Part shown: positions 36,655 to 61,081 of the stretch, in pieces
Numbering within the stretch: the stretch's first letter is position 1
Layout: each line of letters opens with the position of its first letter
Assembly (NCBI GenBank): GCA_018389105.1
Contig: JACATO010002132.1
Location: 62,001 to 126,000, forward strand
Direction of reading: 5' to 3'
Origin: Nautilus pompilius
Taxonomy: Eukaryota; Mollusca; Cephalopoda; Nautilida; Nautilidae
Length of the DNA stretch: 64,000 nt
Translations under genes and position numbers: made by a program
The notes under the pieces: model-generated
The model's database searches: none
What the model was told of the DNA's origin: nothing
The model's input: only the letters and a program-made list of their open reading frames with translations

Positions 36655-36931
36655 TCTCTCTCTCTCTAGTGACGTCATCATCTTTGTGTGGTGACATCAT
36701 CTCTGTGGTGACGTCACATCTATAGTGACGTCACATCTCTCTGCTCTGTAGTGACGTCATATCTCTCTGTAGTGACATCATCTCTCTCTGTGGCGGCGTC
36801 ATCTCTCTCTCTAGTAACGTCATCATTTTGGGTAGTTACATCATCATCTTTGTGTGGTGACGTCATCTCTCTGTAGTGGCGTCACATCTCTCTGTTCTGT
36901 AGTGACGTCATCTCTCTCTGTGGTGGCGTCA

Positions 36932-36966
<35 letters not shown>
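36655..36966. repeat. CRE-bearing minisatellite, locus 1
   Basis: Irregular tandem units of CT-rich spacer plus TGTAGTGACGTCAT or variants (GTGACATCAT, GTGGCGTCAT, GTAACGTCAT). I count six perfect TGACGTCA octamers. The array ends in a pure CT run (about 36930-36966). It is the same family as the arrays at 50.2, 58.8 and 59.8 kb. Confidence 0.9.
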
Positions 36967-37372
36967 CGGGGATCCGACTAATTTCTTATCACAATTCCTC
37001 TGCGAGAGTCGGGATTTCAGTCTCCATCGCCAAAGGGCCCGGGTGGGGTGGGGGGGGAGCGGTTTGATCGGGTTGAGTAGAGCTCCTGGAATGGCCGTGC
37101 TCGGACGTGGCAACAAGGAAGCGGCTGTACCGTTCAGCTATGGAACTCTCGCAGGAGAAATAGGCGGGCTGCCCACGGAGCGCCATCTGGAGGGTTACTA
37201 CGTAAAAAGATGGCTGTGTTTTTTGTTGTTGTTGTTGTTGTTGAGGAAAGAAGCTTGAAGTGAGAACCCGGGGGGGTCACACAATCCACGTACCTCCGAG
37301 CTGCTTGCCTGGTCTTGTCATACTTCGCTTTGCTTGGATAACTCATTTTCACGAACAATAAAGTGTTGTTGT

Positions 37373-37413
<41 letters not shown>

Positions 37414-38273
37414 AAGCAGACATTTGTTTTCTGGAGGCTGATTCATGAGTATGAACGCCCGTGTGCGCGTGCACATGAATACCCATTCTTCAGTTGTTTC
37501 AGAGAAATGTACCCCCGGAGGGGTGGGGTGGGGAGACCTGCTCTTCGCCGTCAAACGGAAACAAAATACGGGTGAAGGAAATGAAAGAAGTCCTTGGCAG
37601 CTTAAATAGAAAAGCTAAAAGAAATTTAATCTAACAAATAGCACTCCAAAATGTCACAAAGCGGGGCACGGTGCTCGGGTTATCGTGAACATCAAGTGGT
37701 CCCTTCTGATAGCCGAATTTTTTTTAAAAATGTAAATAAAACGAGAACAAAACTACTGACAGGCAAATAAATACAACCCCGACATATGTAAAGTACCGCC
37801 GGGATTTTCCATTTAGAAAAAAAAAATAAATAAAGAGAAACTTACTTTGAGAAACTGTCGTTTAAAATACAACTAAGGGAGCGGCCATTTATTTATTTCA
37901 TGGTATTACACCGATCTTTGTATTTTTAAAAAAAGGGCATGAAGATTCCGATTAACGTCCCCTTGTAAAGATTTTGTTGCTGCTCAGAGATGGTCGGGCG
38001 CGTCTGTAGTATTCTCTGCTGCTGGTGGTGGTGGTGTTCTCTTCTGAGTAGCAAGATTAGACTACGGCCGCTTTGGCTGCAAAGTTTGTCTATTTGGTTC
38101 AGATCCGCACCGATAGCGAGGCGCCAAGCGAGGGGACGTATCCTTATTGCACTGGGGATAATAACATAATAAATCTTTTATTCATGGCGACGCCAGGATA
38201 GAATACAAGGCAAAAGCGGCGCGCTTACGTGCGAGGTATACAAGGAGGGAAAAGGTCTTGCCAGATTTTATAG

Positions 38274-38867
38274 ATGTTAGAGGAAACCGGGGTAGACGGA
38301 GCGGCTGTTCTTCAGGTTTTCAGAGTGGAAGGCAACAACGAGGTGGAGAATGTTCTCCTCATACCCACCGGCATTTATGGTTCCAGGCACAGAAACAACG
38401 TCAAGTCTACGTTCGTATCCCCGCCACATACAGGATTCCGCTACCACAGACGATGTTCCCTCGGTTGTGGGCTCGTAACCGCGTTTCGCCAAACTCTCCT
38501 TCGGCTATCGAAGACAGAGCTGGGGAGGATTTAAATTCCAACGGAAATGACGACTTGCCAAACTCAGTCAACGGTTGCGGTAGCCAACGTGTGTTCAGTC
38601 GCCAACTCAGTCACCGTTCTGATGGACATCCCGTTCTTGGTTCTCCGCGAGGTGCTCGCTTCAGCGGTACATTCAATAAATGACTGTCCCGCCTTCTCCA
38701 GGAGTTGTCTTACTTGGACGGCCCACCACGTGACTGTCGGCAACGAGACGAAAGATGGCCGAAAGGCTAGCATTTTTTGCTTTCTTTCCGATGATTCGCC
38801 CATTCTCTTGCCACACCTGTACACAATGGCAGTTTTGCACGCAACACCCGAAACGTGCACGGTCTGA
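38274..38867 (+). other. Long reading frame with one stop, no recognised product
   Basis: One frame runs 198 codons with a single TAA (near 38532-38536). The minus strand is also open over much of the same stretch, so base composition may explain it. The peptide has no motif, signal or domain I know. It could be a decayed repeat, or chance. Confidence 0.2.
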
Positions 38868-40679
38868 CGCGTGTATAAGGCCATGTTACCGTCCCTTTAT
38901 TTTTTTTTCCCAAAGCCAAACCTAGCCCCGATTTCGCTCAACCGTGAAAATGCCTACCCGTTGCCACATCGACTTCAGCAAAGATGGCGGCTTCCCACGA
39001 CTTTTGTTCAAAACGCAGACCAACAAATAGCTTCCGAGGTTCGTCCAGCTGCCCGATTTCGGTTGAGCGCAGAAGCTCGGCTAAATATCGCGGTTATAGA
39101 CCAGATACAGTTTCCATCAGCTAATAACCTCGATAGGGGAGCAGGGGGTTTCGGGGGGGGGGGGGATGTCCGTCCGGGTTGTCGTAAAACGCGGTTGTAG
39201 AACAGTTGTGCACCGCTGTAGACATCGTCAGCTATCTACAGAGTAACGCGATACCTTTAAGCACCGATTAAATACCGGTTAATTTCTTCTTTTTTTTTTT
39301 TTTAAATTTATTTACTGACTTAAAATTAAAATGTCAGGCGAATGGTGTTTTAAACGCTTTTGATAGAAGCAGGGAAGGGATAATCACTATTTAATGAGAA
39401 GGGGGCCGCATGAGAAATAGTCGTTAAAAACGAACTTTCTCGCATTATGTTCCCTTTTCCGACATTATCTTTACCGGGGAAACCGATAACAACAACAGTC
39501 GAACCGTATCAAGAATTAACGACATGTTTTTGGGTTTAATCGGAACCCCTCCCTCCGAACAAACAATGGCTGTCTTAATGTTTTGCCGCATAAATGTCGT
39601 TTCCTCGTAATTTTAATTGATCTGATTAACGATGAAACGCAAAGGCCGGGGGGGCTATCGACAGTTGACTCGGAAGCCAAGCTGCGGGTAGTAGTCGAGA
39701 GTTCCTGCCCTATCCCCCGCCGATGTATCAGACTTTCTAGGTCTTCGGCGGTTAAGGAGGAAGCGGGGGACAAAGAAATGAACAGAGGGGATTTCTCGAG
39801 TACGAAAGTCGATCGCCCGCTCAGATTCAGTCTGACGGCGGGGACACCCGGCTGCGAGACGCCTCCGTCTGAGCCGGGCGCTACATCCCACTCACCTCTC
39901 GAAAAATAACAATCTCAATTTGACTATTCAATTAAACGACACGCGAAAGTCCGCGCGTTCCGGCGCCATGCCACTTCGATTGGCAGCGCCACCTGGAGGA
40001 AGCTCTCCTCCAGATAAATAAGTAAGTTCGGTTTAGTTTACCGGGAAAGAAACGGGTTATCAGTCCGGCTTTTGATCTGATTCACAAAAACCACCCCCAG
40101 GGAGCGGGTGGCCGACCCTGGGTAACGGAAGCATCGATGACGTCATTTGCCCTATTGCGCCTGCGTGCGGCGGTCAAAGACTATGACTTCCAGTCGGATC
40201 TGTCCACTCAGAAAGACGTTAGCTGCGGCAGAAATTCGGATCGTTCGAGTATGGACTGCTCCCCCCCACACGTGGTCCTCGTCTACGTGATTTTCGCTCT
40301 GTTCACCGTCAAAGAGCATCGGACTTTGTATGCGCCCCCCCCTCTCCTTATTGTGTACGGGACGACGAAGGCGAGAGCGAGTCGTGAGGGGCGTCGGCAC
40401 GCGCGGAACGGCGAGAACACAGGGGGGGTCTTTGTTCGGACGAGGAAAGCGCGGATCGAGGTTACTCTTAAAGGTCGGAGTCAGCGCCGAACCCGAAACT
40501 GGGACGGCCGATCTATATCCGAACCACGTTAGCAATTGCAAACAAACCTTATCAGGTCATGCGCAGATGCTTACAAGGGGAAATACCCCCCGCTGGTAAA
40601 GGGAGGTAACCCGGGTTTTTTTTACGCCGCAAAAGCCCTAATGGAGGCTTTATTTATCTCAGACGCGGAAAGAAACCCT

Positions 40680-40775
40680 ACGCGACCGGGACTCGAACTC
40701 GGCGCCCTAAAACAACAAAAAAAACAGTAACCAGGCCCAGTAATCTACCCACCCCTGGGACACCACGCCGTTAGC
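40680..40775 (-). mobile_element. tRNA-derived SINE head
   Basis: On the minus strand GGCGTGGTGTCCCAGGGGTG (A-box-like) is followed, after about 50 bp that include a TTTTTTTTGTTG insertion, by GCGCCGAGTTCGAGTCCCGG (a clear B box, near 40688-40701). The spacing is too long and the arms do not pair as in a functional tRNA, so a SINE head is the better call. Confidence 0.55.
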
Positions 40776-41568
40776 AACAAATAAGGGATACGTACACACA
40801 CGGCGCATACATTCGCACATTTTTAAGATAACGTGATAACGGTTGTTTGTTTACTCCAAAATAATGTTCACGAGAACTTTATCTTTAAAGGCATTTACTC
40901 GCTAATTCGAAAGAAAACAACAACAACAACAAAATGTTCGGTTTACGATTACACGCTTGACGAATTCCACAGACAGAAAGCATAAACGGGCAGCTTTCTC
41001 CCCCGCCCCTAACGATTAACGACTGTGTCGGGATGTCCAGATACGGGCGAGTAGTAACCGCTCCGGAGGCTGGCCGGGGGGTCCGGCATGAACTGTTTTA
41101 TTGTTGCTCATCGTGGCTGTTAAAACGAGGAGGGAGTGGAGCCCTTTGAAACCGGGGATGGGGCGGGGGGGGGTAGGGGAGACAAATAATGCGAAGGGAT
41201 GAAAAGATTTCGTTGGTGGTTGGGTTAGTCAAGTTTACAACAGTTAGGACTCTGGAGGGCTCCGTCAAGACACTTGTCATAATTAAATACTGAACTCCCA
41301 CTTTTATCTCATCTAGTGAACACCAGAACCACCCTAAGGCGAATAAAGCAATCTGAGTTGCGTCCCTTCCTTACTACGATCATCATCTAAAGTTACTATT
41401 CAAAACTGCCATGAACGACGCGCGGGGTGGCTGTAGTGCTGGCTGTGTATCGATTTCTGGATCAGCCATTGTGTTGTGATGTATTTTTTTTTGTTATCGC
41501 CGCATATACTTATTTGTTGTTGTTGTTTTTTTTTCCTAACGTTTTTACAAAACGTTCCTCAAAGAAAT

Positions 41569-41850
41569 AACTTCTCTCTCTCTCCATCTCCATCTCTCAC
41601 TCTCTCTCTCTCCATCCTCTCCTCCATCTTTCTCGCTCCATCTCTCTCTCTCTCCATCTCTCTCTCTCTACTCCATCTCTCTCTCCAGGCTCTCTCTCTC
41701 TCCATCCTCTCTCTATCTCTCCTCCATCTCCATCTCTCCATCTCTCTCTCTCTCTCTCTCGTCTCTCTCTCGCTCTCTCTCTCTTTTTTTTTTTTTTTTT
41801 TTTCCCTCTCTCTCTCTCTTCCATCTCATCTCTCACTCTCTCTCTCTCCA

Positions 41851-41902
<52 letters not shown>

Positions 41903-42057
41903 CTCTTCTCTCTCTCTCTCTCTCCTCTCTCACCGCCTCCTCTCTCCATCTCTCTCGCTCTCCATCTCTCTCCTCTCTCTTCGTCTCTCTCCATCTCTCT
42001 CTCTCCTCTCTCTCTCTCCGCTCCTCCATGCCAGATGCTCTCCATCTATCTCCTCTC

Positions 42058-42106
<49 letters not shown>

Positions 42107-42141
42107 CTCTCCTCTCTCTCCTCCTCTCTCTCTCTCTCTGC
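41569..42141. repeat. 570-bp pyrimidine (CT) tract
   Basis: Almost pure CT on the plus strand, broken by short CCAT, G or T18 interruptions. Every frame gives Ser/Leu (or Arg/Glu) low-complexity peptides, which are artefacts of the repeat. Confidence 0.95.
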
Positions 42142-42669
42142 CCACACCCCCCCGGTAGAGTTAATCATTTCCGCCAGCTTTTAAAGCTCACGACTTTACT
42201 TTAGAATGCAATAAAAACTGCACGAAAAGATTTTTTTTCTCTCTCTCTCTCTCCAAAATTCGACTTTAATCGATTAAAAAACCGTAACCCCCCTCTTTCT
42301 TTTTTAAAAAATCGAATGCACCACACAACCTCGCCTAGAAGACGGGCTAATTAATTAATGGCAAGACTGTAAGACGATCCGAGACGTGCGAGGGGTGGGG
42401 GCAGTCTGAACGTTGTCCGATAGTTACACTGGCTTTTGGACTGACCGCCTCAGGGCTGTTTGAATATAAAAACTTGACGCTTTAAAGCTAGATAAATGGG
42501 GTCTGGACCAGTCCATTCGATGTCGCAATCCGCTCGGTACCCAACCATCCTCGGCCGAGATCAATTTGCTTGGAACTGTCCGCGGTTAGGTCTCTACCAG
42601 AGTGATGGAAATTATGCCAGTTGTTGTTGTCGTCTTTGGTAATGCTCCAGACGTCGAGTTGTGACGCCA
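42142..42669. other. No feature recognised
   Basis: Mixed-composition DNA between the CT tract and the Helitron remnant, with a second short CT run near 42236-42254. Some of it could be upstream Helitron sequence too decayed to recognise. Confidence 0.5.
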
Positions 42670-43045
42670 TTTTGTATGTTTAATGACGTCAGATCTGTGT
42701 GTGTACGAGGAGAGTGCAGTGTCTCCTGAGGCTAATCGTGAGAGGATTATTCCGTAATCTCATGGACGCTGAGATTGTAACATGCAATGACAAAGGTGCC
42801 CAAGTACTTTATTCCAGAAACAAAGTTTCCTTTCACGTCGAAAAGAGACGACGGTTTCCGTTAATTCCAGTTTCCGTTGCAACGGTGAATAAATCTCGAG
42901 GGGAGACTTTTGATCGGGCAAGAGTAGTTTTACCGGAAGCAGTACTTTTCTCACGGACAGCTCAGCTGTGTGTGTCGTATTGACACGAATAAGATCAGAA
43001 GACAATCAATCTCCAGATTGTTTTCTGTTGAAGATTAGAACCAAG
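42670..43045 (+). mobile_element. Helitron helicase remnant
   Basis: Helitrons are rolling-circle DNA transposons coding a Rep nuclease fused to a Pif1-like helicase. The plus strand reads VRGLFRNLMDAEIVTCNDKG and then RRRFPLIPVSVATVNKSRGE followed by TFDRARVVLPEAVLFS, matching the helicase C-terminal block (family RNCIDAEILTGxxKG, RRQFPIRLAFAMTINKAQGQTFD, PVFSHGQLYVALSRV). A frameshift near 42970 leads to LTRIRSEDN, the counterpart of SRVRSxDN. Only this last helicase part remains; Rep and the 3' CTRR end were not found. Confidence 0.82.
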
Positions 43046-45164
43046 GAAAATTATTTAAATATGAAAAAGTGCAGCCTGTTTGGCTGGATGGTAATAATTA
43101 TATATTTGAATTTCAGTTTCCTTATATGGCCCGTCTCATATCGATGCCTTTTCAAATATTGCTATCATTCCCTGTCATCTCTGACGGGCAAGCAGACTAA
43201 TAATAATGATAAGCACTGGTTAATTGACACTAAATAGAAATTTGATGATTCTTCTGTTAGCATCCGAAAGCAAATAAGCACCGATGGAAAAACTAGTCTG
43301 TATTTTAGCTACAGAGTTAGGGTTATTCGTTTATATTCTAGAAACAGATTTTCCAGGTAAGACCTTCACTTCTTTGAAAGGCCTTTTTTTTTTAAATTAA
43401 ACGATAACCTTACAACACACAGGGCTAGGTGCAAGATTTAGAAGAGAATTTGCTCTTAATCTGCTACATTCATCAACTAGGATAAGAGCCTCTCTCGTTG
43501 TTCGATAGAGGGCGCAGTTTTTAAACCCACTAACCGGGTCAGCATTTGCGTAGCGTACGGATGATAGACATCTGGTATAAACTCTAGAATGGAGCACGAC
43601 TGATTATTCAGGCGCAGACAGACTGCAGTCTATGCATCATTCATGTTCATCGTATCGTGTTTTTAGTTTTAAAAATTAAATTATCAAATTTATTGCTATT
43701 GCTTTTTTTTTTTTTGTTACTTTATCGTCTGGAGTTTCAGGTCGAAAGTGGGTCAAACGCTGAATCTGTGACCCAGAAATTTTGAAATCTTAGATGCAAC
43801 AGATGTCTCACCTGTCATATAAATCACCACACCTCAAGATTAATTTTGTCCGTAATGGACTTCCGCCTGATGTAAGTTGGCTTGCATAATAAAAACACGT
43901 AGCAAATATAGAAATTTCCCTATCCACCACTTCATAGTTGCTGTAATAACCAATTTAAAAAAAAAACAAACAATTAATTGATAATAACTTAAAATAAATA
44001 AATGGAATAACCAAAAACACGTCTCGAAATCTGTGTCAAAGCCCGTAGACACAACCCGCCTGCAGGGGGCGCCAAACGCTGCATTCGGCGAGGTTGCCAA
44101 AAAAACGTTCATTGCCGAAATAGTATCGCGAAGCAGATAATAACAGCTCGGCTAATTTTAGATAACTTAGTCAGTGGATGTTCTCTTATTGGCCTGACCC
44201 AACCGTGCAGAATCATCTAGACTCCGATGTTACTATCCCTGCTTCCTTTTCACACATCCTTGACATTTAACTGGGGTTTTTTTGTTGTTTTTTTATGTCA
44301 TACGTCACAAAATCGCATTCCTGAACTCCGCCATTTTAAAGTAAAATCGTCACAATTTGGTTCATGTTGCTAAAAGCCATTTTTTTTTTAAAAAAATAAA
44401 AACTGACGAATTTTATGGCTTTATTTTAGCGGGCTATATATTATACATAGTTAATTTCGTTTAAAAAATCATCTTTTGTTAGATAATTGTAAAAAGAAAA
44501 AGGAAAGAAGAGTAAACCAAAGTGATGACGCTATTGGCTGTTGGGAGGTATTTGTGACGTCATCGGATGAGGAGACAAGAAAAAGTGACGCAATTTTATA
44601 ACTACGCCCCCCGGACAGGTACTGCACCAACCAAAGGAGTCCGCTAGCGACTCCCGACTGGTCGAGCAACCTTTTTTCTTCAGCAGGAAGCTGGAAGGGG
44701 AGGGAACCACGAGTGTTCTCTCGTCACCGGACGAGACTAATCCGGATTCCGGCTGCTTGGCCCCCTCCTCTTACTGTTTGTTGTCTGCCGACCGTTTCTA
44801 TGCGACGAGACGATCGAGGAGATGGAAAGGAAAATGTAAAAACCTCCAGGCAAAAAAAATAAATAAATAAAAAGGCGTAGATTTATTTCCCATTTACCCC
44901 TACGGCTCTTCGGCGTGGCCACTGGCTAGCTAGCCGTGTCAGCGTGACGTCAGCTTGGCTCGGTTACAGGTAAATCAATCATTCCAGCGTGACACGGTTC
45001 GCTCAGGTGAGTTCCACTTCTAGTCGGATACTGTCAGCTTTGACGGGGCTGGGAATACGATAATGAATGCTTTTTCACTACCTTATTTCTTTTTTTTCTT
45101 TAAACGGATTTACATTAAAGCGCAACCTTCCACTAAAAGGAGCGAACAATAATCTAAAAGTTAA

Positions 45165-45290
45165 GGTTTTACCTGTTGCCAGGAAGGTACGCCAAAGCCA
45201 GAAAGGCCAGGATTGGAACTCGCGTCCTCCATCTCGTCAGGGTACCGCCAGGCCATCGCGCTGCCCATACAAAATTAAACAAAATAGTGA
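45165..45290 (-). mobile_element. tRNA-derived SINE head
   Basis: The minus strand reads GCAGCGCGATGGCCTGGCGG (A-box-like) and about 35 bp on ACGCGAGTTCCAATCCTGGC (B-box-like). The body after the head is short or lost. The head differs from those at 40.7, 47.3 and 57.8 kb. Confidence 0.5.
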
Positions 45291-45305
45291 GTGTCCATTG
45301 AAAGG

Positions 45306-45320
45306 TAAAAAAAAAAAAAA

Positions 45321-45376
<56 letters not shown>

Positions 45377-45378
45377 GA
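45306..45378. repeat. Poly-A then (AAT)n microsatellite
   Basis: A run of A followed by about 16 AAT units, possibly the tail of the adjacent SINE or another retroposon. Confidence 0.9.
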
Positions 45379-46799: not shown

Positions 46800-48001
46800 T
46801 TACCGCAACAATGAGACTTCATATCTCTGCTGAACGTGAAGTTCATTAATCAAAGTTCCATTACAATCGATACACTTCTGCCAACGAGTTACAAGCGCAT
46901 TTATGCCATTTTGAAAAAAATCTGGATTTCTGGAGTCGATAAACTGTTGGAAGGCAGTTTCAGTTGCTGCTTGATTGGAGAAGGATTCCATACGGAGGAA
47001 GTTGTCGAGATGTTTCTTTCCTCTTCTTCTTCGATCCCTCATCTCATAAGAGTGGGATGCGTTGCACCATCATTATGCGCACTCTGGCCCAGTGCATCCG
47101 TCTTCAGCAGCGGTTTATTCTTCTGACTTTTCCTTGTCATAGGAGACTCGCCTCTGTCATGGCTATAGAGCATCCCCCGCCTTTGGTTCCTCTGTCGGAG
47201 TGCCTACGCAGGCCACTCCTCAGCAGCAACTGGAGTAATGCCAGTAAAGTACCTCGCTCAAGGGTCACAACAATGTGCCAGCAGCGGGAATTGAACCCAG
47301 GACCCTTAGGTCCTGAAGCCAACACGCTCACCACGTTGCCTAGCGTCGAGGTGTTTGAAAAGGTGGTAATCTGTGGGACAAAGGTCTGGTGATAAGGAGG
47401 GAGAACTTCGTATCCCAATGTATTCAGTTTCTGAAGAGTCACTTTTGCAACGTGTGGACGAGCATTGTCGTGGAGCAGGATTGGGCCTCTTCGATTCACA
47501 ATGCTGGCTGTTGTTGGGAGAGTTTTTGATGAATGACGTTTAATTCACGATGATACCTTTCAACTGTGATGGTTTTGCCAGGTTTTGTTTCTGATAACAA
47601 ACGAAGAGCAGATCTCCAATCGACGATTTTGTTGTTGTACATTCAATTCGTGGAGGCACCCACCTGTCAAGCTGTTTCACCTGGCCGATTGCGTCAAGAT
47701 GCTGGGAAACAGTTGCAGTGCTTACGTCAAGCTCTCCAGCAATTTCTCGCACTGTTTTTCTTGGAACGACTTCAACTGAGGCTTTAAGATGGTCGTCATC
47801 ACAGCTGGAAGAATGTCCGCCACATTCCTCATCTTCGAGGCTCTCATCTCCTGATCGAAACTTTCCAAACCATCGTTGTACTGTGCGCTCACTTGCTGTG
47901 TCCTCGCCCAATGCTCGCCTAATGTTACGAGTTACCTCGCTCGCTTTGTGGCCTGGTTTGAAATGGTGAAGCAGAATGGCACGAAGAACTTTTCTATCTA
48001 T
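46800..48001 (-). mobile_element. mariner transposon, internally deleted and interrupted by a SINE
   Basis: The minus strand encodes most of a mariner transposase close to the Hsmar1/SETMAR type. From 48001: VLRAILLHHFKPGHKASE, then ALGEDTASERTVQRWFGKF and RSGDESLEDEE (paired helix-turn-helix region), and HLDAIGQVKQLDRWVP. A frame change then leads to a short NRRLEICSS piece that jumps straight to RYHRELNVIHQKL, so the part with the first catalytic Asp (TCDEKW in the family) is deleted. GPILLHDNARPHVAKVTLQK (second Asp, near 47450) and DYHLFKHLD follow. A SINE (47016-47344) splits the copy; beyond it come NFLRMESFSNQAATE and RWQKCIDCNGTL. A possible terminal repeat starts TTAGGCCGTTACAAAAGTTT near 48190 on the minus strand. 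The copy is inactive. Confidence 0.9.
47016..47344 (-). mobile_element. tRNA-derived SINE inserted in the mariner copy
   Basis: It is flanked by a target-site duplication in mariner sequence, GTCGAGATGTTT (47004-47015) and GTCGAGGTGTTT (47345-47356), one mismatch in twelve. Read on the minus strand, the head is GGCAACGTGGTGAGCGTGTT (A box) and GGGTCCTGGGTTCAATTCCC (B box), the body about 230 bp, and the tail GAAGAAGAAGAGGAAAG. Length, split pol III promoter and duplication agree with LINE-driven retroposition. Confidence 0.82.
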
Positions 48002-48944
48002 GCTTCATTCAGGATCCTGAAACAAATATCCATTTGATGATTTTTAAAACAGTAGGTTCTGCACTATGTATGCCACAGCACACGCTACAAAACGATATAC
48101 AACTTATCTACATACACCTTCACAAGCATGCGAGAATGAATCCTAAATTAACATAATACAAAAACCGACAAAACTTTTGTAACGGCCTAATAAACGATTT
48201 TTACGTTTGTTTTCCATTTAACCCCTGCCAGTCAGCCGTTCCACCGCTGAGTTTCTGTAGTGACAATTTTAGGAACCGATGATGGGCCAGACAGAAAAGC
48301 ATTCTACGTTCTTATCTAAATTTTTCTTCACATCAAGTAATCGACAAAATTGGCCAAACCTATTCCATTTTCTTTAAAAAAATGCACTGTTAGATCAAAG
48401 ATCCTGTTTACACACACATCTTGAAGACGAAGAGTTCTAGTTGGTTATCTTGCTGCTTGGAATATGATGGATTCTTCGGAAAGAAAGACTTCTAATGAAT
48501 AACTTTGATGATGTTTACCAAAAGGGCTTTTCATTTTTGTGAACTAAGTTAATGAAATTTTTTTTGAAAGTGAAGTGGACATAACGATGGAAGCGGAGGT
48601 GACAGGGAAAGGTGTCCAAGACGAACGGCTGGAGAACTATCCAAAGATCCAGGCACTAGGAGATCTGGTTCTATTCAGAACGGATGTACTGCGGTGCTAC
48701 TGATCAGACCATAAACAAAGAACTAATTAGAAATACTGCATGCTTGGATCCGCAAACGTTTAAGAGAGTTTGCTGCTGCTGCTGCTGCTGGTATTCATGA
48801 AAACAGTCTTCGGAAGACTGCTGAACTAACAGGTCTGTTGTTTTCTTATACACCCGGGGGGGGCGTGGTTGGATCGACGAGCCTCGCACTAGATTTTAAA
48901 GAACGTTCAAATGCGCTCCAAGACGAATATCGGTCGGCCTGCCC

Positions 48945-48986
<42 letters not shown>

Positions 48987-50214: not shown

Positions 50215-50775
50215 TTAGAGAGAGGAGAGAGGAGAGAGAGAGAGAGAGAGAGAGATGACGTCATTAGAGAGAGATGGAGAGAGATGACGTCATTACAGAG
50301 AGATGACATCATTACATAGAGAGATGACGTCATTACAGAGAGATGGAGAGATGACATCATTACAGAGAGAGATGACGTCATTAGAGAGAGATAGAGAGAG
50401 ATGACATCATTACAGAGAGAGATGACGTCATTACAGAGAGATGGAGAGAAGATGACATCATTACAGAGAGAGATGACGTCATTAGAGAGAGATAGAGAGA
50501 TGACATCATTACAGAGAGAGATGACGTCATTACAGAGAGAGATGACGTCATTAGAGAGAGATAGAGAGATGACATCATTACATAGAGAGATGACGTCATT
50601 ACAGAGAGATGGAGAGATGACATCATTACAGAGAGAGATGACGTCATTAGAGAGAGAGATAGAGAGATGACATCATTACAGAGAGAGATGACGTCATTAC
50701 AGAGAGATGGAGAGAAGATGACATCATTACAGAGAGAGAGAGAGAGAGAGAGAAGGAGAGAGAGAGAGAGAGAGA
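50215..50775. repeat. CRE-bearing minisatellite, locus 2 (inverted orientation)
   Basis: Tandem units GAGAGATGACGTCATTACAG and GAGATGACATCATTAGAG in alternation, ending in pure GA (50730-50775). By my count there are 11 perfect TGACGTCA octamers and about 9 TGACATCA variants. Reverse-complemented, the unit reads CTCTCTGTAATGACGTCATC, so it is the same family as the other loci on the opposite strand. Confidence 0.92.
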
Positions 50776-51002
50776 GACGAGTAGAGAAACGCGTTTTGAA
50801 TACTCGACATCGAGCAAGTGGCGAACATGCCCGACCGTTTTGGAACGGAGGGAGCCTCGTTCCCCCGCCATATCGTGCCTCTCTGAAGGGGAGGTAATCC
50901 GATTTATCCGTCTGATTAATTCTACGCACAACTTCACCTTTTAACTATGTATAATTTTAATGATAAAGATAACACACTAGTATGGTAACTTTATAAGCTG
51001 TC

Positions 51003-51060
<58 letters not shown>

Positions 51061-51417
51061 GGTTCTCACTCATTTTAACCGAATATCTGCAACAAAGGAC
51101 GCATATGGTTTCTTCAGATGTTGCTGGAGTATTTTCACTCGCAGTCTGTTCTGCCGGCCTGAAATCGTTTTAAATAAGCTGTCGTCAGCGCGTCTCTCCC
51201 CCTCCCTACCCCACCCCTTCCCGAACTTACATGTGGTTTTTGACCCCCCCTACTCACCTAGTTTATCGGATCCCCACCACACCCCCACTTAACACAAGAG
51301 TCGACACTTTCCTTCAGTCCTTTTCATAAATGCCAGAGAGAGAAATAGGTGACTGCGACACATGAACACAGCGATATGCAGGCTGTAAACATAACAACAA
51401 CAACAACAACAATAATA

Positions 51418-51458
<41 letters not shown>

Positions 51459-52849
51459 GAAATAGAATTTAAAATAATATTAATAATAATAATAATAATT
51501 CGAAATAAACAAGTTTTTTTTAAAAAAATTAAATAATACTTTCCATAAATTACCCATAAGGCTCAGCGAGATACGTCCGGAAAGAAAGTGGCGTCGTTGG
51601 TTCCTTCCCGGTTCTTTCACGTGATTCCACCCCCTCCCCCCCCCAAGAAAAAGTACAACGAACCGGGAGCTATTAGAGCTTATCTCCCAGCAAACGAACG
51701 ATGGCGAAGTGACAGGACTTCAACTCGCAGTGATATACGATAGCAAACTCCGGCCGGTCGCGACGAAGATCCAGCAGTAATAAACGTGTCGGCGTATCCC
51801 GCCATTAGCGCGGGGGCAGCCATCAGCCCTGACGGTTTAACCGCACGGAGAGAGAGAGAGGAGGCCGATTGAGCGACAAGATCGGATCGGGTCGCTTTAC
51901 GGAGATCTAAGTCACGCTCCGGTGAATTTTATTGCTTGAGGGGGGGGGGAGGAAAATAAAGAGGTTGTAGGCGGTATTAAACAAACCTGTAATTCTGTTG
52001 ACAAATGCTACTCAGGAACGAACTTATACGTTGTCCTGTTTTTCTTTCCTATTATTTATTTTGCAGGTTTGCTCTCGGCACTTAAATACTCTCTCCCGTC
52101 GCCGCACATTGAAAATAGTTTTTGCCATTTCGTTAAATGGAGACATTTAGACTCCCTCCCACCCCAGCTCTGCTGTACGCCGAAGCAGAGTTCTACTGAC
52201 GGTGTCGGAGGACGGAATGTAAAGCTTCCTGTCGAAACGAAAACTAAAATCACAAGACACTTTAGGAACAGCGACAACAAATCAACGTTAAACGTATTTC
52301 CACCTTCGTTTGCTCTGTTTTGTTTTAACCGTACATTTAACAGCGAATCTAGTAGACTGAAGCGAATTCATCGCCTGGCAGCATCTTGGTGGGAAGGATA
52401 ATCATGGACGTCCATGGCTCGTAACTGTTTTCTTCTTTTCTTACCACTAAGATGACGGGAGACTACGACTGCCCAAGCCTGAATAAGCCCCATAACATTG
52501 GACAACAAAATGAAACTTCTTGTCTGCCACCGAGTCATATGTGGGTGATCTTAGCTAAATTTTGGGTGCTGGTTTTAAATCTGAAGTCAGAATTTGCTAG
52601 GACGTCAGGTTTTTCAGATTTGCATAAGGAGGAATTCCACCAGTAACGCTATATTATGAGTTATGTTATATGAACTATATAAAGCTTGAACAATAATATT
52701 TGGTATTCATATGTTTAATGTGAAACATATTTGCCATGATCAGGCAACAGATGCATGCATGAGAAAGACTGATAAAAGCAGTATGGAAGATATGGAACGC
52801 GTTTAACTTACAGAGTAGGTACATTCCAAAGTTCAAAAATGTTTCAAAC
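50776..52849. other. Intergenic DNA, no gene seen
   Basis: Holds (ATT)n at 51006-51060, a back-to-back (AAC)n(AAT)n and (ATT)n pair at 51388-51460, and C and G runs. CpG-rich to about 52400, then AT-richer towards the fossil element at 52850. No family motif in any frame. Confidence 0.55.
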
Positions 52850-53770
52850 ACTTGTTCTTGCGCTTATGTGAGGTATCAGTCTCCCTCTGGAGGAACCAAC
52901 AGTAATCACCCATCATGTTGAGATTGAATTTGCCCTGATATCTACTTTACATCACCTTTGTGTCTTGGTGGAATCTTTTACCATGCTCATCACTGACAAC
53001 CCCTAGATTGGTTGGAGAAAAAAAATCAGATGCGAATGCAGAAAATGCATCTTCAGAGACATCCTGGCCCCATTCGCTGATACGCCATTAGCATGTTTTA
53101 CACATACTCAGCATAGTGCTCAGCTCTATATTTGCCAAGAAAGTTTTGTACAACTAGAATAAATGCTTCTCATGCTGCAGACTCCTGTGGGTTCAGCTTA
53201 TTTTTTGAATCTGTCATCACGCATGAGTTCTCGAATTTCGGGCCCCATAAAAATTCCTTCTTTGAGTTTAGCTTCACCTTTATCAGCACCAAACTTCTCT
53301 CTTAGGTACTTGAAGCCATCATCGTCTTTATCCACGGCTTTGACAAAGTTTTTCATAAGGCCGAGTTTGGTATGAAGTGGGGGAAGGCAGATATTCTGAG
53401 GGTCTACCAATGGCAAATGTTGCACATTGTAGTACCTGCTAACTATAGGTTCCTATCGCATAGACAAGTCTTTTCGAGTGTAATGGTTGGCATCATCACG
53501 GCTGTTCCAAAGACACAAGAAACATGCGTGTTTTATGTACTCTAGCTGCAATCCGAGGAGAGAGATAACTTTGAGATCACCACAAATTTTTCCATTTATG
53601 ATCCGAATAACTCGTCACTTTCAAAAGGAGTTCCTTCGACTCGTATGTCTCTCCCAAGCCTACTGCATGAGCTATAGGAACCGAAGGGTTTTGGCTACCA
53701 TGATGTAACAGCACAGCTTTAAGGCTTAGTTTGCTACAGTCTACGAATAACCTCCATTCATCAGTCACGT
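52850..53770 (-). mobile_element. Fossil of a second unnamed multicopy invertebrate gene/element
   Basis: The minus strand carries, in order, TDEWRLFVDCSKLSLKAVLL, HAVGLGETYESKELLLK, LPPLHTKLGLMKNFVKAV, then KYLREKFGADKGEAKLKEGI and FMGPEIRELM, and lastly RFHQDTKV and GDYCWFLQRE. These match a protein present in large copy number in arthropod, cnidarian and other invertebrate assemblies and annotated only as uncharacterised. The copy is decayed at several points. Left and right borders coincide with a change from CpG-poor to CpG-rich sequence. The family's mobility mechanism is unknown to me. Confidence 0.7.
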
Positions 53771-56700
53771 GCCATAACTAAAAAAAAACGTGACGTCCAA
53801 GAGCAAAACGGTTTTCAGAAGCAAGCATGACGGTGTCCCGGTGGCAGAATCATTGTTGTCCTGTGTTGTCAGCCTAAACACGAGCTGCGTCACCGACGAC
53901 GACTTTCTCGAGGAATCGGTCAGCACGAGTTCCTGGATCAGCCGACGCTGGTTCAGTGTGACACTATCCGCGGATCTTTTCTTTGAGGTGCACCGAAGGA
54001 GAACGGACACCGGTCGGAATTAAAAACGAAATGAACACCCGGTGCGTCCATCGTAGTATATTATGGTCGTCGTCTCAGATCTACGGGACAGACGAACTGA
54101 CGATTTCTTAGAAAACGCCGCCTATTGTTCGCGTTAAGTTGGGTAGTTTTTCTTTGCCTTTTTTTTCCCCCTTAAAATACCTGCCACCGTTTCGTAGACG
54201 CGAAGACCGGCCGGTGATATCTGGAGCGATTTTCCTTCGTCTTGATATCTGATTGAGTTGGTTTTTTTTTTCTCGTATCGATGTGTATCGCCGATTTTTA
54301 GATATATTTTTTTTTTTAGTGGATAAGGCATCTTCAAAGAGACGAACACGATCGGGTCCCGTCGAGCCGACATCCTGCTACCCCGCCAGACTATCCGCCG
54401 GCCCCACTCAATTCTGCATAATTCAGCTGCTTGTTCCCCATCCCTCCCAGCCTCTGTTTTCCTTTTATGGTGTTCCGAGATGTAAGCCGCCGAGCACCCC
54501 CACCTATTTTGGATTTATTCTGATGTTTGCTGTTCACTGAGCGAACAAACAAGCTCCCTCAGAGGTAATGGTTTCCAGGAAGGCCCGCTCTGCAAGGAGC
54601 CTCTGTCTCAGTCCGATACTGTTGATCCCCGTCCAGGGTCTCACACGATGGCACTTCCCGAAGTACGGCCCACTTATGCGCAGTCTGCAACTCATCCAAT
54701 TGATCTCCAGTCACGGTCTGCTCCGCTGTGGCCCGACTCGGGTATCTCATCCCATCTGGGCCTGATGCTTAATTCTTCTTAATCGTCTTAAGCGTGGCCT
54801 ATAGCCTTCCTAGTGTCACCGGCTTCCTCCTCCCCCCCCCGCTCGCTTTTTCTACCTCTCCCAGCGATTTTATACTGTTGTCCAGGTAGCAGCTGTCATC
54901 TCGTTGCCATTGGCTGTAACTGGCTCCGGTTTTATTTCGGCCTGGTGTTTTGACCTGATCTTGGCCTCACGCTGCTGCCTCTTCAAATCCTCAAAATCTT
55001 CAAGCCCTGGGATCCATGGGCTGCCTGATTGAACTGCCCCCCCCCACACACTAATCTCAGCATCAGCCTTTTTCTTCTATCCTGGCGCTAGTGTAGTCTC
55101 TATCTCCCCACTAATCTCTTTCCCTTAATCTTATATCAAAACCCGGGGGTTTTCTTGCTTAATGCTGTCTCCTTGATTGTGCTGCCCATCAGCGGAAGGA
55201 GCAGTTCCCACTTGACGTCCAGCAGTGCTGTAAAAGACCCCCAGATGTTTAATTAGGAATTACTACCGATGCGACAACTTACTCTTGTAACAGCTGACCC
55301 GGGTGGTCTCCCTTACCTTCATAAATTCCTCCAGTCTCAACTCAAACAAAGGTGTTGGTGGTTGTATTATCTGCTAATTGGTCCTGACTTTTCCCTTCGC
55401 CTTATCAACGGCATTACGATTAATTACCGAACCCCCGCTTCGATTATCTATCCTATTGTCACCATCGGGGTTTAATGGGTTGTTTTCTGTTTTTTTTGGA
55501 GATATCAGGTGGCTTGACTTGGTCTCGAGCCTATCACTGACCAAGCTTTTACGCTATTTCATAATATCGTATCCGTAAGCAGTAGCGGATTGACGGACGA
55601 GTCCATGGGGGCCCGGACATTTAGGGGGCGCAGGGGGGGGGATTAGTCTAGCACTGCTATGGCGGAAGGAAAAGCAATACATTAAATACATATATATTTA
55701 ACATATTAATGACAGAATGCAATTTCTAAGTGTTTCAAGTGCCTCGTACATTTCATAACGGTTTCGTTACTTAAAAAGGCAAATATTTAAATATGTAAAA
55801 TTAACTGAAAATCCCCGACATAGGCCGTCTACGTTGAACCACGATTGGCGCTTTTATCACATGTCGTATTCCAATATGCAAATGAGTTCCTGTGCAGTTA
55901 GTCCGATGCGATCGTTGCGCGTCAGAACTCTCAGACGGTTTTTAAAAAGTCCCGCAGCGATGGGTCGGCGGTACTTGGTCCGGAGCGCTGAGAGGAAAGA
56001 GGGAAAGGAGGTTAGAGATGCTTCTCCGCCACAAATAATAGTGAACCAATATTTCGAGGAGAGATTGAGTAGGTCCTCGTCGGATGCGCAACGGGGAATC
56101 TGTTATGCGGAGCTGACTTATTTACTCACCATCTTTTTTTGAAATGTTAACGCTTTGCCCACAGACTTCTTTCGACTTGCCCTCCTCCCCCAAAACGAGG
56201 GATTCTTATCGGATGATTCGGCAACTGGAGAACAGCCCCCCTCCTCCTCCCAAACGCCTTTCCGAGCGTGAGAAAAGTTCAGAAACACCGAAAATGTGCC
56301 TCCATGGATGCGGAAGGATAAAGGCAGTCCATGTCCCGTCGTCGAGTATTTGTGAAGAATTTGCTGGGAGCCAGGAAAACGCAAACACAGCAGCAGCAAA
56401 ACCGCAACAATCCAAGTAATTATCGGTGATTGTGGATTAAGCGACTTCCGTCGACCTCTCTAATTGCCACGGCCACACACCAGGTGGAGCTGTGGCGCAG
56501 ATTCCATTTGAAGGCTCTGGGTCAGGACTTACAGTAAAATTTGGCCGACTGCCAGAAGATCTATCGAAAGACACGAACCAGTCACATGACCGGAACTGTG
56601 GGACATCCAGTTTAAAACGGCCGGTTTGCAGTTACAGAAAAGTGGCACCGGCCCGAATACAGCAGATCGGTTATTGCGGTGACCTGAAACATCAATTCTG

Positions 56701-57794
56701 TAATTTTGAAAATGCTGCTGAAAACACACGCAAGACTCACAAAATCATCAAACCGATCTAACCGGTGCCCGAAAAACGAGAGCAGTTTGCAGAGAATTGG
56801 GAGGACAATTTGAGATCTTACTTGAGGGAAGCCAGAAGATTCGTACTACATCATAACTGGCCCAGCTATTTGCTTGTCTTTATCGTCGACTGGATGCCTG
56901 CAGAATGATAAAGCGATCATCGCTTTGGAGTACCGTTGTATCCACGACTTGTTGGGCATCAATGAAATTCGAAAGCTTGCCGCAGTTTACCCCCAAATGA
57001 CTTCAAACGGAACTTTCCTGATGAACTCGTACAGTTCAGATTCTTTGTATGGGATGAACCAGCCAGACAATTCTCCAGCCAAACTGTTGCAAGTCAAAAG
57101 ACCAAAAAAAAAAAAAAAAAAAAATGGCTTTCAGTCGACATCCCCCATTGCTTTCAAAATTCTCCCGATTCTGCCAGTTACAGGCAGCGGGAGGACGACG
57201 CAAGTTCTCGACGGTGGCAGAAATTAAGTGAATCGAGGGATCAGCGATGCTTCGGGATGATAAGGAACTGCCATGTACTCATAATAGGGATGACAACTGC
57301 ATCTTATAAATAGTTCTTAACAAACGAGTCGACGAGATGACTAAGGTCTCGGGTTATTTTACGTTTATGGCGACTCAGCCAGTTTCCTGTGGTAAAATAG
57401 AGCACTTAATTCAGACGGGTCGTTTCGGTTTGAATTATTAGCAGTGCGGTGGGTAACCATCCAACAAGGTCAACTTATTACCGCATCTTGGATACATCCG
57501 TGTTTTTAATAAGGTGCGGGGAGACTCCCGACGTTCTTCGCTCTCCTCAGGGCCCCAATATAATTCTTAGTCCTCTTCTGGGCGTACAAGCAAAACTTTT
57601 GTATTATAATGATGCCTTGTCGCATCAGTAGACGCGGGGGGGTGGGGGGGTAGGGGGGTGGGAAGAAATTTCTGACCCTTCTGTCAGTGTAGATTTAATA
57701 GCGTTTTGGAAAAAAAAACAAACATGTTCCGCCCGGCTGCAACTTTCACGCGGTAACTTAAAACTAAATATGGTAGATAGTGAACGGCGAAATA
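53771..57794. other. Intergenic DNA, no gene recognised
   Basis: CpG-rich with many unconvincing frames. The stretch 54560-55030 is open on the minus strand over short segments (GLEDFEDLKRQQREAKI near 54970) and may be retroelement-derived, but no diagnostic motif is present. At 55580-55640 a G-rich stretch (GGATTGACGGACGAGTCC) resembles the terminus of a dispersed element. An A21 run lies at about 57103-57124. Confidence 0.45.
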
Positions 57795-57900
57795 AAGATG
57801 GCGCGTCAGTCTAGTAGCAGAGGCCGCTAGACTGTTAAAGTCGTGGGCCTGAGTTCGAATCTCCGTCGGGGTTTGGCTCACCCTCTCCCTCCCTCGTAGG
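57795..57900 (+). mobile_element. tRNA-derived SINE head
   Basis: GATGGCGCGTCAGTCTAGTA (A-box-like) followed by CCTGAGTTCGAATCTCCGTC (strong B box). The 80-bp distance is long for a tRNA and there is no clean acceptor stem, so this is a SINE head. A CCCTC-rich body follows, ending before the GAT repeat at about 57938. Confidence 0.55.
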
Positions 57901-58789
57901 GGCCCTCTTCTCCAGTCATTTAGAAAAAGAGAGAGAGATGATGATGATGATGATTTCTAGCGCTGGGTTCGAGGCCTCGCAGGGTTTCTTCCCAGAATTC
58001 ACAGCGTCAAATGGCAGGTAGCGGAAGAGATAGTATAAACAGTAAGAAAATACATGAACACGTCGATTCGACCCGAGTTGCCTAATAATTCATCGGGAAA
58101 TGCTAAACACAGTAGTAAGTCGTATTGTGCGTTAATTTCCAGAGTGAGCACATTAAAAAGAAAAAAGAAAATTCCTTGCCCTATTTATTTCAGAATTTTG
58201 GCTTTAAATGATAGATTATTTTACGATAAACACTTGGAAACAGCCTCCGGGGAGCGCGCGACTGTCAACGTAAGCAGAGCTGTGCCCCCTGTTCACGGCA
58301 TCAACTCAACCAACACCTCCGTCCGGCACGGTTCGAGTCTCAGAACTAGAGCTGAACGATAATGTATTTTTTTTATTTTTTTTTTAAAGCCAGTCACAGA
58401 TTTGATTCTGAATAATTATGCGGCCGCGAGTGAGTGGCTGCGAACATTCTAAAATATGTTAACCAGAGAAGGTGAAGGGTTAGACCCGGTTGGTAGTGGT
58501 TACAGCAACCGTTGATTTCCTAATCGTACAGGAGATAGCCTTCAAACCACGTGCGACGCCGTTTAATTAGAAATTATGTACTTAACCCTGTAACGACGAG
58601 CTCCGGTCTTTCTCTGCGATCACAAGGTTAACCACACCAGTGAAACATATGGAGCTGATTACACAACACACATCCCGCCAGTAGCGGGATGGAGACGGCA
58701 GCCCCAAATCCACCCCGGACAGGCGGAGGATGTATCATTTTCGTACGTTGACTTTGAATACATATAATGTTCTTTCTCTATATATATAT
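57901..58789. other. No feature recognised
   Basis: Unique-looking sequence with a short (GAT)n at 57938-57952 and poly-T near 58365-58385. Confidence 0.5.
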
Positions 58790-58978
58790 ATGAACTGACG
58801 TCATTTGTTTCTCTCTGTACCGACGTCATATCTCTCTGTACTGACGTCATATCTCTCTCTGTACTGACGTCATATCTCTCTGTACTGACGTCATATCTCT
58901 CTCTGTACCGACGTCATATCTCTCTCTCTCTGTACCGACGTCATATCTCTCTCTCTGTACTAACGTCATCTCTCTCTC
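58790..58978. repeat. CRE-bearing minisatellite, locus 3
   Basis: Eight units of CTCTCTGTA(C/T)(T/C)GACGTCATAT, four of them with perfect TGACGTCA, the others CGACGTCA or TAACGTCA. It ends in CTCTCTCGCGCGCGCACACAC. Confidence 0.92.
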
Positions 58979-59829
58979 GCGCGCGCACACACCTAGAAAT
59001 TTGGGGGATCAGATTCAGTTTCTCAGCCGTTTCCCCCCCCCAGTGTTTTCACTTTTGTCAGTAATAACCTGATGCCTTTGTACTAATTAATCACCAGCTA
59101 ATACAAAATACTTTTTTTTTCTGAAGTAAACACGGTTTTTCATTTATTTATTACGGTTTCCTTGTTAAAAGCCAGCCATTAATCAATCCGCCAGCCGGTA
59201 GTTCAACACGATACCTTAGAACCAGCCTAACCCCTTTCCGCCTCCCTGTACAAGTGCCGTTGTGGTAGTCTTTCCGGTTAGTAGCCCGACCACTTCCTCC
59301 CACCGCAAATTCTCTTTTTTTGATAATGGCGGATCTGTCGGTTACGACTTCACGAGCCGCCACAAAGCCACACTGACATTATTCGTGACTGGGTGGATGG
59401 CGAACCTATACTATTTATAGAGAAAGATGCGATCTACATTCTGGACCGTGTGTTGTTTTTGCGAAGTTATCTTCGTCAGTTTTCCGTCGTTAGCAGCTCA
59501 TTTGAAAATACTGCTTAACTAGCTTGGCCACCACGCCATCCTCTTCTGGCTTACGTCTCTGAGATGCTTTCAGACCTCGAAAGTCAGAGACTTTTTTTTT
59601 TTAAATGTAAATTGAATAAAAACGAATACGTAGATCACGGACGATTTTTTTCTTTTACATTCATCTCCGGAAGTTGCCAGACCTCCCTTCCTCCGCCTTG
59701 GTCCACCCTGTCGATTATTTCAGCCCGTGGCGTGACCAGAAACCCTATCCGGGTGGGGTTAGAGTTGCGCTGCACCGGAAGCAATCTCCGGGGTAAAAAA
59801 TGCCTGGCGCTCTCTCCCTCCCTCCCTCT
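58979..59829. other. Spacer between two CRE arrays, nothing recognised
   Basis: An 850-bp non-repetitive, CpG-containing stretch with poly-C and poly-T runs. No gene motif. Confidence 0.5.
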
Positions 59830-61036
59830 CTCTCTGTACTTTCGTCATATGTTTCTCTCTGTACCGACGTCATATCTCTCTCTGTACTGACGTCACATGT
59901 TTCTCTCTGTACTGACGTCATATGTTTCTTTCTGTACTGACGTCATATGTTTCTCTCTCTTGTACTGACGTCATATCTCTCTGTCCTGACGTCATATGTT
60001 TCTCTCTATACCGACGATATATCTCTCTCTGTACTGACGTCATATCTCTCTGTACTGACGTCATATCTCTGTCCTGACGTCATATGTTTCTCTCTGTACC
60101 GACGTCATATGTTTCTCTCTGTACTGACGTCATATGTTTCTCTCTATACTGACGTCATATCTCTCTGTCCTGACGTCATATGTTTCTCTCTGTACCGACG
60201 TCATATGTTTCTCTCTGTACCGACGTCATATCTCTCTCTGTACTGACGTCATATCTCTCTCTGTACTGACGTCATATGTTTCTCTCTGTACCGACGTCAT
60301 ATGTTTCTCTCTGTACTGACGTCATATGTTTCTCTCTATACCGACGTCATATCTCTCTCTGTACTGACGTCATATCTCTCTGTCCTGACGTCATATGTTT
60401 CTCTCTCTTTGTACTGACGTCATATGTTTCTCTCTTACCGACGTCATATCTCTCTCTGTACTGACGTCACATGTTTCTCTCTGTACTGACGTCATATCTC
60501 TCTCTGTACTGACGTCATATCTCTGTCCTGACGTCATATGTTTCTCTCTATACCGACGATATATCTCTCTCTGTACTGACGTCATATCTCTCTGTACTGA
60601 CGTCATATCTCTGTCCTGACGTCATATGTTTCTCTCTGTACCGACGTCATATGTTTCTCTCTGTACTGACGTCATATGTTTCTCTCTATACTGACGTCAT
60701 ATCTCTCTGTCCTGACGTCATATGTTTCTCTCTGTACCGACGTCATATGTTTCTCTCTGTACCGACGTCATATCTCTCTCTGTACTGACGTCATATCTCT
60801 CTCTGTACTGACGTCATATGTTTCTCTCTGTACCGACGTCATATGTTTCTCTCTGTACTGACGTCATATGTTTCTCTCTATACCGACGTCATATCTCTCT
60901 CTGTACTGACGTCATATCTCTCTGTCCTGACGTCATATGTTTCTCTCTCTTTGTACTGACGTCATATGTTTCTCTCTATACCGACGTCATATCTCTCTCT
61001 GTACTGACGTCATGTCTCTCTCTCTTTGAACTAACT

Positions 61037-61080
<44 letters not shown>
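59830..61080. repeat. CRE-bearing minisatellite, locus 4 (main array)
   Basis: About 50 units of 21, 23 or 25 bp: a (G)TTTCTCTCTGTA or CTCTCTGTA spacer and CTGACGTCAT, CCGACGTCAT or CCTGACGTCAT. I count about 47 GACGTCA cores, some 34 of them perfect TGACGTCA palindromes. A 542-bp higher-order unit is present twice in tandem. The array ends in a pure CT run (61035-61080). Open frames here (for example TDVISLSVLTSYVSL) only reflect unit length and lack of stops. Confidence 0.96.

Positions 61081-61081
<1 letters not shown>

What the first reader, a model, noticed from the sequence alone, without database searches (positions are those of the whole stretch)
36655..61080. A minisatellite family built on the cAMP-response-element palindrome TGACGTCA
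Four separate arrays (36655-36966, 50215-50775, 58790-58978, 59830-61080) share one design: a CT-rich spacer and a TGACGTCA core. By hand I count roughly 55 perfect octamers. TGACGTCA is the consensus site for CREB/ATF bZIP factors, and CpG methylation at its centre is known to block CREB binding. The spacer drifts by lengths of two bases while the core is retained or changes mostly at the first base (T to C) or at the CpG (CG to CA). Such an array could act as an enhancer, a CREB/ATF sink, or may be neutral DNA that happens to expand; nothing here tells these apart. I do not know a described satellite of this design.
Basis: partly seen in the sequence, partly recalled or inferred. Interest (0 to 1): 0.72.

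Follow-up and report, generated by a model that had tools for sequence, protein, structure and literature searches.

The report
Genome-wide repeat family carrying CREB sites
An animal genome carries a large scattered family of short tandem repeats, each unit a CT-rich spacer plus the TGACGTCA site that CREB/ATF proteins bind, and the sequence evidence so far fits DNA that multiplies without a job better than a conserved control element.

Summary
The four arrays hold 55 of the window's 59 perfect TGACGTCA octamers; shuffles give 0.7. The window's genome (727.6 Mb, animal) holds 93,914 octamers; one exact 26-base unit occurs 1,649 times.

The unit is (CT)n-GTAn-TGACGTCA-T(AT)-(CT)n. Flanks of 27 array places share nothing consistent beside the array, so no carrier transposon was seen. 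Of 39 array rows, 1 lies in CpG-depleted DNA, against 9 of 20 random stretches from the same contigs. Loci amplify their own variants.

Core constraint: mixed. Genome-wide, the core's TGAC is intact in 77% of otherwise perfect units, the neighbouring GTAC in 53%. But the excess sits in two of the four GTAC bases; T and A beside the core are about as stable as the core; and broken-core units are not significantly less duplicated in longer haplotypes.

Best reading: a non-adapted minisatellite spreading between CT tracts, probably bound passively by ATF/CREB. Binding, methylation and function are untested. A yeast-M26-like recombination-hotspot role is possible; its one test here (GC rise) was negative.

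The parts
36655..36966 (+). Array 1: 13 recognised units, 6 perfect octamers, mostly GTAG/GTGG before the core; ends in a CT tract
50215..50787 (-). Array 2: 20 units, 11 perfect octamers and 9 TGATGTCA (CT strand), GTAA or CTAA before the core; 266-bp higher-order period; CT tracts at both ends
58790..58978 (+). Array 3: 8 units, 4 perfect octamers, 3 CGACGTCA, GTAC before the core
59815..61090 (+). Array 4: 50 recognised units, 34 perfect octamers; 458 bp perfectly repeated at a shift of 542; TATGTTT spacer variant almost private to this array
16317..31567 (-). Neighbouring Mondo/ChREBP-like gene (four coding pieces found, 31567-31328, 18884-18729, 17491-17396, 16448-16317); array 1 begins about 5 kb upstream of the first piece. 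Context only
   Evidence: tblastn with a recalled Mondo-like fragment; for the CpG boundary near 30 kb

Best explanation
These are four members of a dispersed minisatellite family with probably thousands of arrays in this animal genome. A short block, GTAn-TGACGTCA-T(AT), sits in CT tracts. Shown: the block is shared across many contigs while the flanking DNA is not; sampled arrays lie in CpG-normal DNA; loci have their own amplified variants and higher-order repeats; one dimeric subtype is regionally clustered. Inferred: blocks reach new places by DNA-repair copying (template switching or conversion) between CT tracts and then expand by slippage and unequal exchange; the core persists mainly because it is ancestral and lies in DNA that is not methylated in the germ line. 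ATF/CREB proteins probably bind the arrays, since the site is perfect and the genome encodes a CREB-type pKID domain, but mostly without consequence.
For: Genome-wide copies of the unit: 620, 1,649, 2,690 with the core free against 31 in the control. No flank shared consistently beside arrays at 27 places. A one-block copy between two CT runs at L047. CT run of at least 8 bases at one end in 34 of 40 arrays. Private amplification: 12 of the 13 genome copies of array 4's 24-mer are in array 4; 458-bp perfect repeat. 1 of 39 array rows in CpG-depleted flanks against 9 of 20 random stretches. Broken-core units share in longer duplications about as often as intact ones. pKID domain present, DNA methyltransferase present.
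Against: The core is better kept than GTAC genome-wide (77% of 2,148 against 53% of 3,128 for four bases), which selection or biased copying would also give. CT runs at array ends are not longer than inner ones (p 0.20) and 6 of 40 arrays have none of 8 bases at either end. Copying between CT tracts was not observed. A similarity test by contig was null (941 of 2000 permutations). The random control came from 17 contigs that hold arrays, not from the whole assembly.
Confidence: 0.6

Rival explanations
1. Regulatory arrays: the cores are kept by selection, as CREB/ATF enhancers or as a genome-wide sink that buffers free ATF/CREB protein.
For: Core retention above GTAC genome-wide. CpG-normal, presumably accessible DNA. 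CREB-type pKID present. 93,914 octamers in the genome against 19,528 of the reversed word. Precedent: CREB/ATF-binding 19-bp repeats in the cytomegalovirus enhancer (PMC6116278, passages).
Against: T and A outside the core are about as stable as the core; C and G of the CpG are the most changed core sites in the larger samples (not in the small second set); broken cores are amplified within many arrays; little helical phasing of spacings (vector strength 0.22); presence at a great many places without common neighbours argues against locus-specific use (inference).
Confidence: 0.15
2. Recombination hotspot: ATF/CREB-type proteins bound at the core promote meiotic breaks, as at the yeast M26 site, and repair expands and spreads the units.
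For: 458 of 696 units contain ATGACGT on one strand, 34 the full ATGACGTCAT. M26 is ATGACGT and needs Atf1 in fission yeast (PMC2677671, passages); ATGACGTCAT makes hotspots in budding yeast (PMC3534124, passages). Intact-core units looked more often duplicated over short haplotypes (282 of 497 against 124 of 296, paired p 0.0017).
Against: That excess loses significance with longer haplotypes or with the core left out (p 0.11-0.87). No GC rise near arrays: about 0.39-0.41 within 500 bp, 0.42 at 2-3.3 kb, higher near in 7 of 22, p 0.15. In budding yeast natural M26 sites do not correlate with breaks. No recombination data for this animal.
Confidence: 0.1
3. Transposon-borne arrays: a mobile element carried the arrays to their places.
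For: Transposons are a known route for dispersing short satellite arrays (PMC5615363, passages). The window holds a mariner-type relic.
Against: No common flank beside arrays at 27 places; the few matches between flanks of different loci lie at unrelated distances from the arrays. Masked self-comparison of the window printed no dispersed repeat. A carrier of a few tens of bases, or one with CT ends, is not excluded.
Confidence: 0.1

Closest known systems
Dispersed minisatellites / short euchromatic satellite arrays (review PMC5615363, passages read)
   Same: Units of 10-100 bp in short arrays scattered over the genome, with higher-order repeats and private variants
   Different: Here the unit holds a perfect transcription-factor site, lies in CT tracts, and the arrays are nearly confined to CpG-normal DNA in the sample
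CREB/ATF-binding 19-bp repeats of the cytomegalovirus major immediate-early enhancer (PMC6116278, passages)
   Same: Repeated short units carrying a CREB/ATF site
   Different: A few repeats in one viral enhancer with shown function; here very many arrays in an animal genome and no shown function
M26/CRE meiotic recombination hotspot of yeasts (PMC2677671 and PMC3534124, passages)
   Same: The motif ATGACGT / ATGACGTCAT
   Different: Single sites with measured hotspot activity; here arrays, in an animal, without recombination data

Membership tests
Minisatellite family | Tandem units of about 10-100 bp in short arrays | tested here: met
   Commonest spacings 21, 23, 17, 25, 19 bp; arrays 63-1,248 bp in 40 sampled arrays
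Minisatellite family | Scattered over many loci | tested here: met
   Copies on many contigs
Heterochromatic satellite DNA | Long arrays of many kilobases | tested here: not met
   Longest of 40 sampled arrays 1,248 bp; longer arrays elsewhere in the assembly or in gaps not excluded
Transposon-borne repeat | Common element sequence beside the arrays | tested here: not met
   27 array places, flanks up to 2.5 kb
cAMP response element (CREB/ATF site) | Consensus octamer TGACGTCA | tested here: met
   55 perfect copies in the four arrays
cAMP response element (CREB/ATF site) | Binding by CREB/ATF in the cell and response to cAMP | not testable with these tools
   No chromatin or reporter data; pKID domain is encoded
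cAMP response element (CREB/ATF site) | Core kept better than neighbouring bases | tested here: inconclusive
   Better than GTAC as a whole, not better than T and A of GTAC or the following T; count for the second core half not answered
M26-type recombination hotspot | Motif ATGACGT | tested here: met
   458 of 696 units on either strand
M26-type recombination hotspot | GC rise around the site, as biased conversion would leave | tested here: not met
   Higher near in 7 of 22 arrays, p 0.15; such bias is unknown in this species
M26-type recombination hotspot | Raised meiotic breaks or crossovers | not testable with these tools
   No recombination data

The most novel reading that the evidence does not exclude
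The unit is a self-spreading, transcription-factor-primed minisatellite: ATF/CREB binding at the core in germ cells opens unmethylated intergenic DNA for meiotic breaks, as at the yeast M26 site, and repair between CT tracts copies the core to new tracts, so that a block of about 15 bases has multiplied into a large share of some 94,000 CREB sites without any transposase.
Probability: 0.07. Interest if true: 0.85.

Novelty: new variant of a known kind. Interest (0 to 1): 0.5.

Why it matters
If the arrays bind ATF/CREB in the cell, this animal carries several times the expected number of perfect CREB sites, and cAMP signalling must work against a large reservoir of decoy sites; that can be tested directly. 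The family is also a natural series, with very many copies of one site, intact or broken, mostly in CpG-normal and now and then in CpG-depleted DNA, to measure whether a transcription-factor site is selected, ignored or used to start recombination. If it is only neutral DNA, it still suggests that a block of about 15 bases can multiply through a genome inside microsatellites without a visible carrier.

Tried and rejected
Taken as an animal from the Mondo-like gene, the pKID hit and the mosaic CpG pattern.

Other origins: an exact pattern of the unit found nothing in viral contigs; none of the 23 viral contigs with three clustered octamers shows CT spacers in the printed stretch. In bacterial and archaeal contigs two single matches, no arrays. 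No tRNA and no Rfam match at gathering score in the window.

Core retention: my first tests found no difference between core and GTAC (p 0.77; p 0.59), but the loci had been picked with GTAC in the pattern. The genome-wide counts went the other way for GTAC as a whole. I report both. In one search the bases after the core were changed less than the core (p 0.0006), though that model leaves changed ones out more easily. The count with the second core half free did not complete.

Core-driven amplification: intact units looked more often duplicated (282 of 497 against 124 of 296, p 0.0017; GTAC control p 0.84). With longer haplotypes or with the core left out the difference is not significant, although intact is slightly ahead in each pairing. 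I treat the short-haplotype result as a matching artefact.

Regional similarity: arrays of one contig are not more alike in general (941 of 2000 permutations; without contig C1 the tendency is reversed, 1920 of 2000); within C1 similarity falls with distance (rho -0.29, p 0.005). Only the dimeric subtype is clearly regional.

Dropped rows: one search uses 40 of 44 regions (L045, L047, L051, L057 gave no usable cluster). One search gives 39 rows; 6 of its 40 loci (L033, L040, L045, L047, L057, L067) gave none. A count of solo octamers (47) contains degenerate arrays and is not used.

In print: searches with the octamer and minisatellite, satellite DNA or tandem repeat, six strings of the unit (no paper), decoy/satellite terms, cAMP response element with minisatellite and minisatellite dispersal terms listed no family of this design. 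I saw listings and abstract starts there, and passages of four papers. Most subscription papers are not held.
Full report
WHAT IS THERE. The window has 59 perfect TGACGTCA octamers, against a mean of 0.71 and a maximum of 3 in 100 dinucleotide-preserving shuffles. Fifty-five lie in four arrays: 6, 11, 4 and 34. Read on the CT strand, the arrays share one unit: a CT tract, GTA plus one variable base (mostly G, A, C, C in arrays 1-4), the octamer, T or TAT, and the next CT tract. Array 2 is on the minus strand. Higher-order periods of 151, 266 and 542 occur in arrays 1, 2 and 4; in array 4, 458 bp are perfectly repeated. The end units of arrays 3 and 4 are among the most degenerate.

SURROUNDINGS. 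Positions 1-30,000 are CpG-depleted (observed/expected 0.07-0.62 in all but one of 30 kilobase bins) and carry a Mondo/ChREBP-like gene on the minus strand: four pieces match a recalled Mondo-like fragment in the right order, at 31,567-31,328, 18,884-18,729, 17,491-17,396 and 16,448-16,317. From 30,001 on, CpG observed/expected is 0.70-1.40. All four arrays lie in this upstream part. Such mosaic CpG depletion is known from invertebrates with gene-body methylation (general knowledge); a DNA methyltransferase is encoded.

GENOME-WIDE. The window is part of a 727.6-Mb assembly. It holds 93,914 octamers; the same word read backwards occurs 19,528 times, an imperfect control because it has no CpG. 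Exact unit forms: 620 copies of a 23-mer, 1,649 of a 26-mer with none in the control, 2,690 with the core left free and 31 in the control, 3,128 with GTAC left free and none in the control. Forty sampled arrays have on average 10 perfect octamers, so thousands of arrays are likely; they were not counted. Elsewhere: nothing in viral contigs, two chance singles in bacterial contigs.

HOW IT SPREADS. I fetched 20 loci of 7-10 kb and 40 of 1.2-1.6 kb around arrays, and 20 random stretches of 2.5 kb from 17 contigs already seen. The flanks of 27 array places share no sequence consistently beside the array. As unit bases differ by about 1-18% per site, a carrier of the same age should still be recognisable (inference). 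L047 shows a minimal form, one block between two CT runs. Of 40 arrays, 34 have a CT run of at least 8 bases at one end, 13 at both, 6 at neither; end runs are not longer than inner ones (p 0.20). Copying between CT tracts during repair is therefore inference. One dimeric subtype has 97 exact copies, 25 on contig C1 (1.05 Mb) and 16 on C356, while C1 holds 46 of the 2,690 copies of the general form; in the fetched sample it is in 10 of 14 C1 arrays and 0 of 29 others. So some spread is regional, although a general similarity test by contig was null. The exact 24-mer with array 4's TATGTTT spacer has 13 copies in the genome, 12 in array 4: amplification after arrival is private.

COMPARTMENT. 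Of 39 array rows, 1 has CpG-depleted flanks (below 0.6); of the 20 random stretches, 9 do (Fisher p 1e-4). With only the 26 rows from loci listed by the free-core pattern it is 1 of 26 (p 0.001). The exception, L044, has 2 perfect cores in 25 units, most others having lost the CpG (8 of 11 anchored units TG/CA); one locus is an anecdote. Flank CpG and the share of cores with CpG correlate weakly (rho 0.35, p 0.03); with the share of TG/CA cores there is no significant correlation (p 0.39).

IS THE CORE CONSERVED? With everything else fixed, TGAC is intact in 1,649 of 2,148 units (77%), GTAC in 1,649 of 3,128 (53%), and the whole core in 1,649 of 2,690 (61% over eight sites); per site about 0.94 for the core and 0.85 for GTAC. 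Against plain selection on the octamer: in the combined sample the mismatch per site in GTAC is 0.17, 0.01, 0.07, 0.18 (299 units, 58 loci), so the excess sits in the G next to the CT tract and in the base beside the core; the core ranges from 0.02 to 0.13 (314 units, 54 loci), highest at its CpG. In the small set picked with GTAC free (42 units), however, other core sites are highest. The T after the core changes in 2.3% of 261 units. What is stable is TAnTGACGTCAT, not the CREB octamer alone. In the loci picked with GTAC in the pattern there was no core/GTAC difference. In haplotypes of 40 bases and more, intact units are duplicated slightly but not significantly more often than broken ones. 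Spacings show little helical phasing (vector strength 0.22).

FUNCTION. The genome encodes a CREB-type pKID domain, so binding is plausible. Passages read: CREB/ATF-binding 19-bp repeats in the cytomegalovirus enhancer (PMC6116278); the CRE-like M26 site as an Atf1-dependent meiotic hotspot in fission yeast (PMC2677671) and ATGACGTCAT active in budding yeast, where natural sites do not correlate with breaks (PMC3534124); minisatellites as short scattered arrays, and transposons as one route of dispersal (PMC5615363). A hotspot might leave a GC rise near arrays; none was seen (higher near in 7 of 22, p 0.15).

VERDICT. A real, large minisatellite family that my searches did not find described, of a known general kind but unusual in being built on perfect CREB sites in CpG-normal DNA. 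Most likely it is non-adapted DNA that multiplies within CT tracts and binds ATF/CREB proteins passively. Enhancer, sink and recombination-hotspot readings remain open at lower probability.

Noticed in passing
window 40138-44952: Four perfect TGACGTCA octamers outside arrays and outside CT tracts; with arrays masked, the octamer is the most over-represented 8-base palindrome of 32-64 kb (8 on both strands against 0.72 expected).
   Followed up: partly
window 32001-64000, arrays masked: CACGTG (E-box, the motif class of Mondo/Mlx proteins by recall) is the most over-represented 6-base palindrome, 26 on both strands against 7.9 expected, upstream of a Mondo-like gene.
   Followed up: no
window about 30000: Sharp CpG boundary: gene body strongly CpG-depleted, upstream DNA CpG-normal.
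   Followed up: partly
window 47140-48004 (-) and 25257-25841 (+): Transposase relics: a Mos1/mariner-type HTH (E 5e-18) and a weak CENP-B/pogo-type HTH match below the curated cut-off.
   Followed up: no
window 41573-42139: Long degenerate CT tract with CCATCTCTC-type units and no CREB octamer, a possible second CT-based repeat type.
   Followed up: no
contig C1 of the genome (L032-L044, L108): Array-dense contig and main home of a dimeric subtype (25 of 97 genome copies).
   Followed up: partly
L060: An array of 22 units with only 4-base pyrimidine runs at its borders, awkward for the CT-tract copying model.
   Followed up: no
L044: The one sampled array in CpG-depleted DNA; its cores have mostly lost the CpG.
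   Followed up: partly
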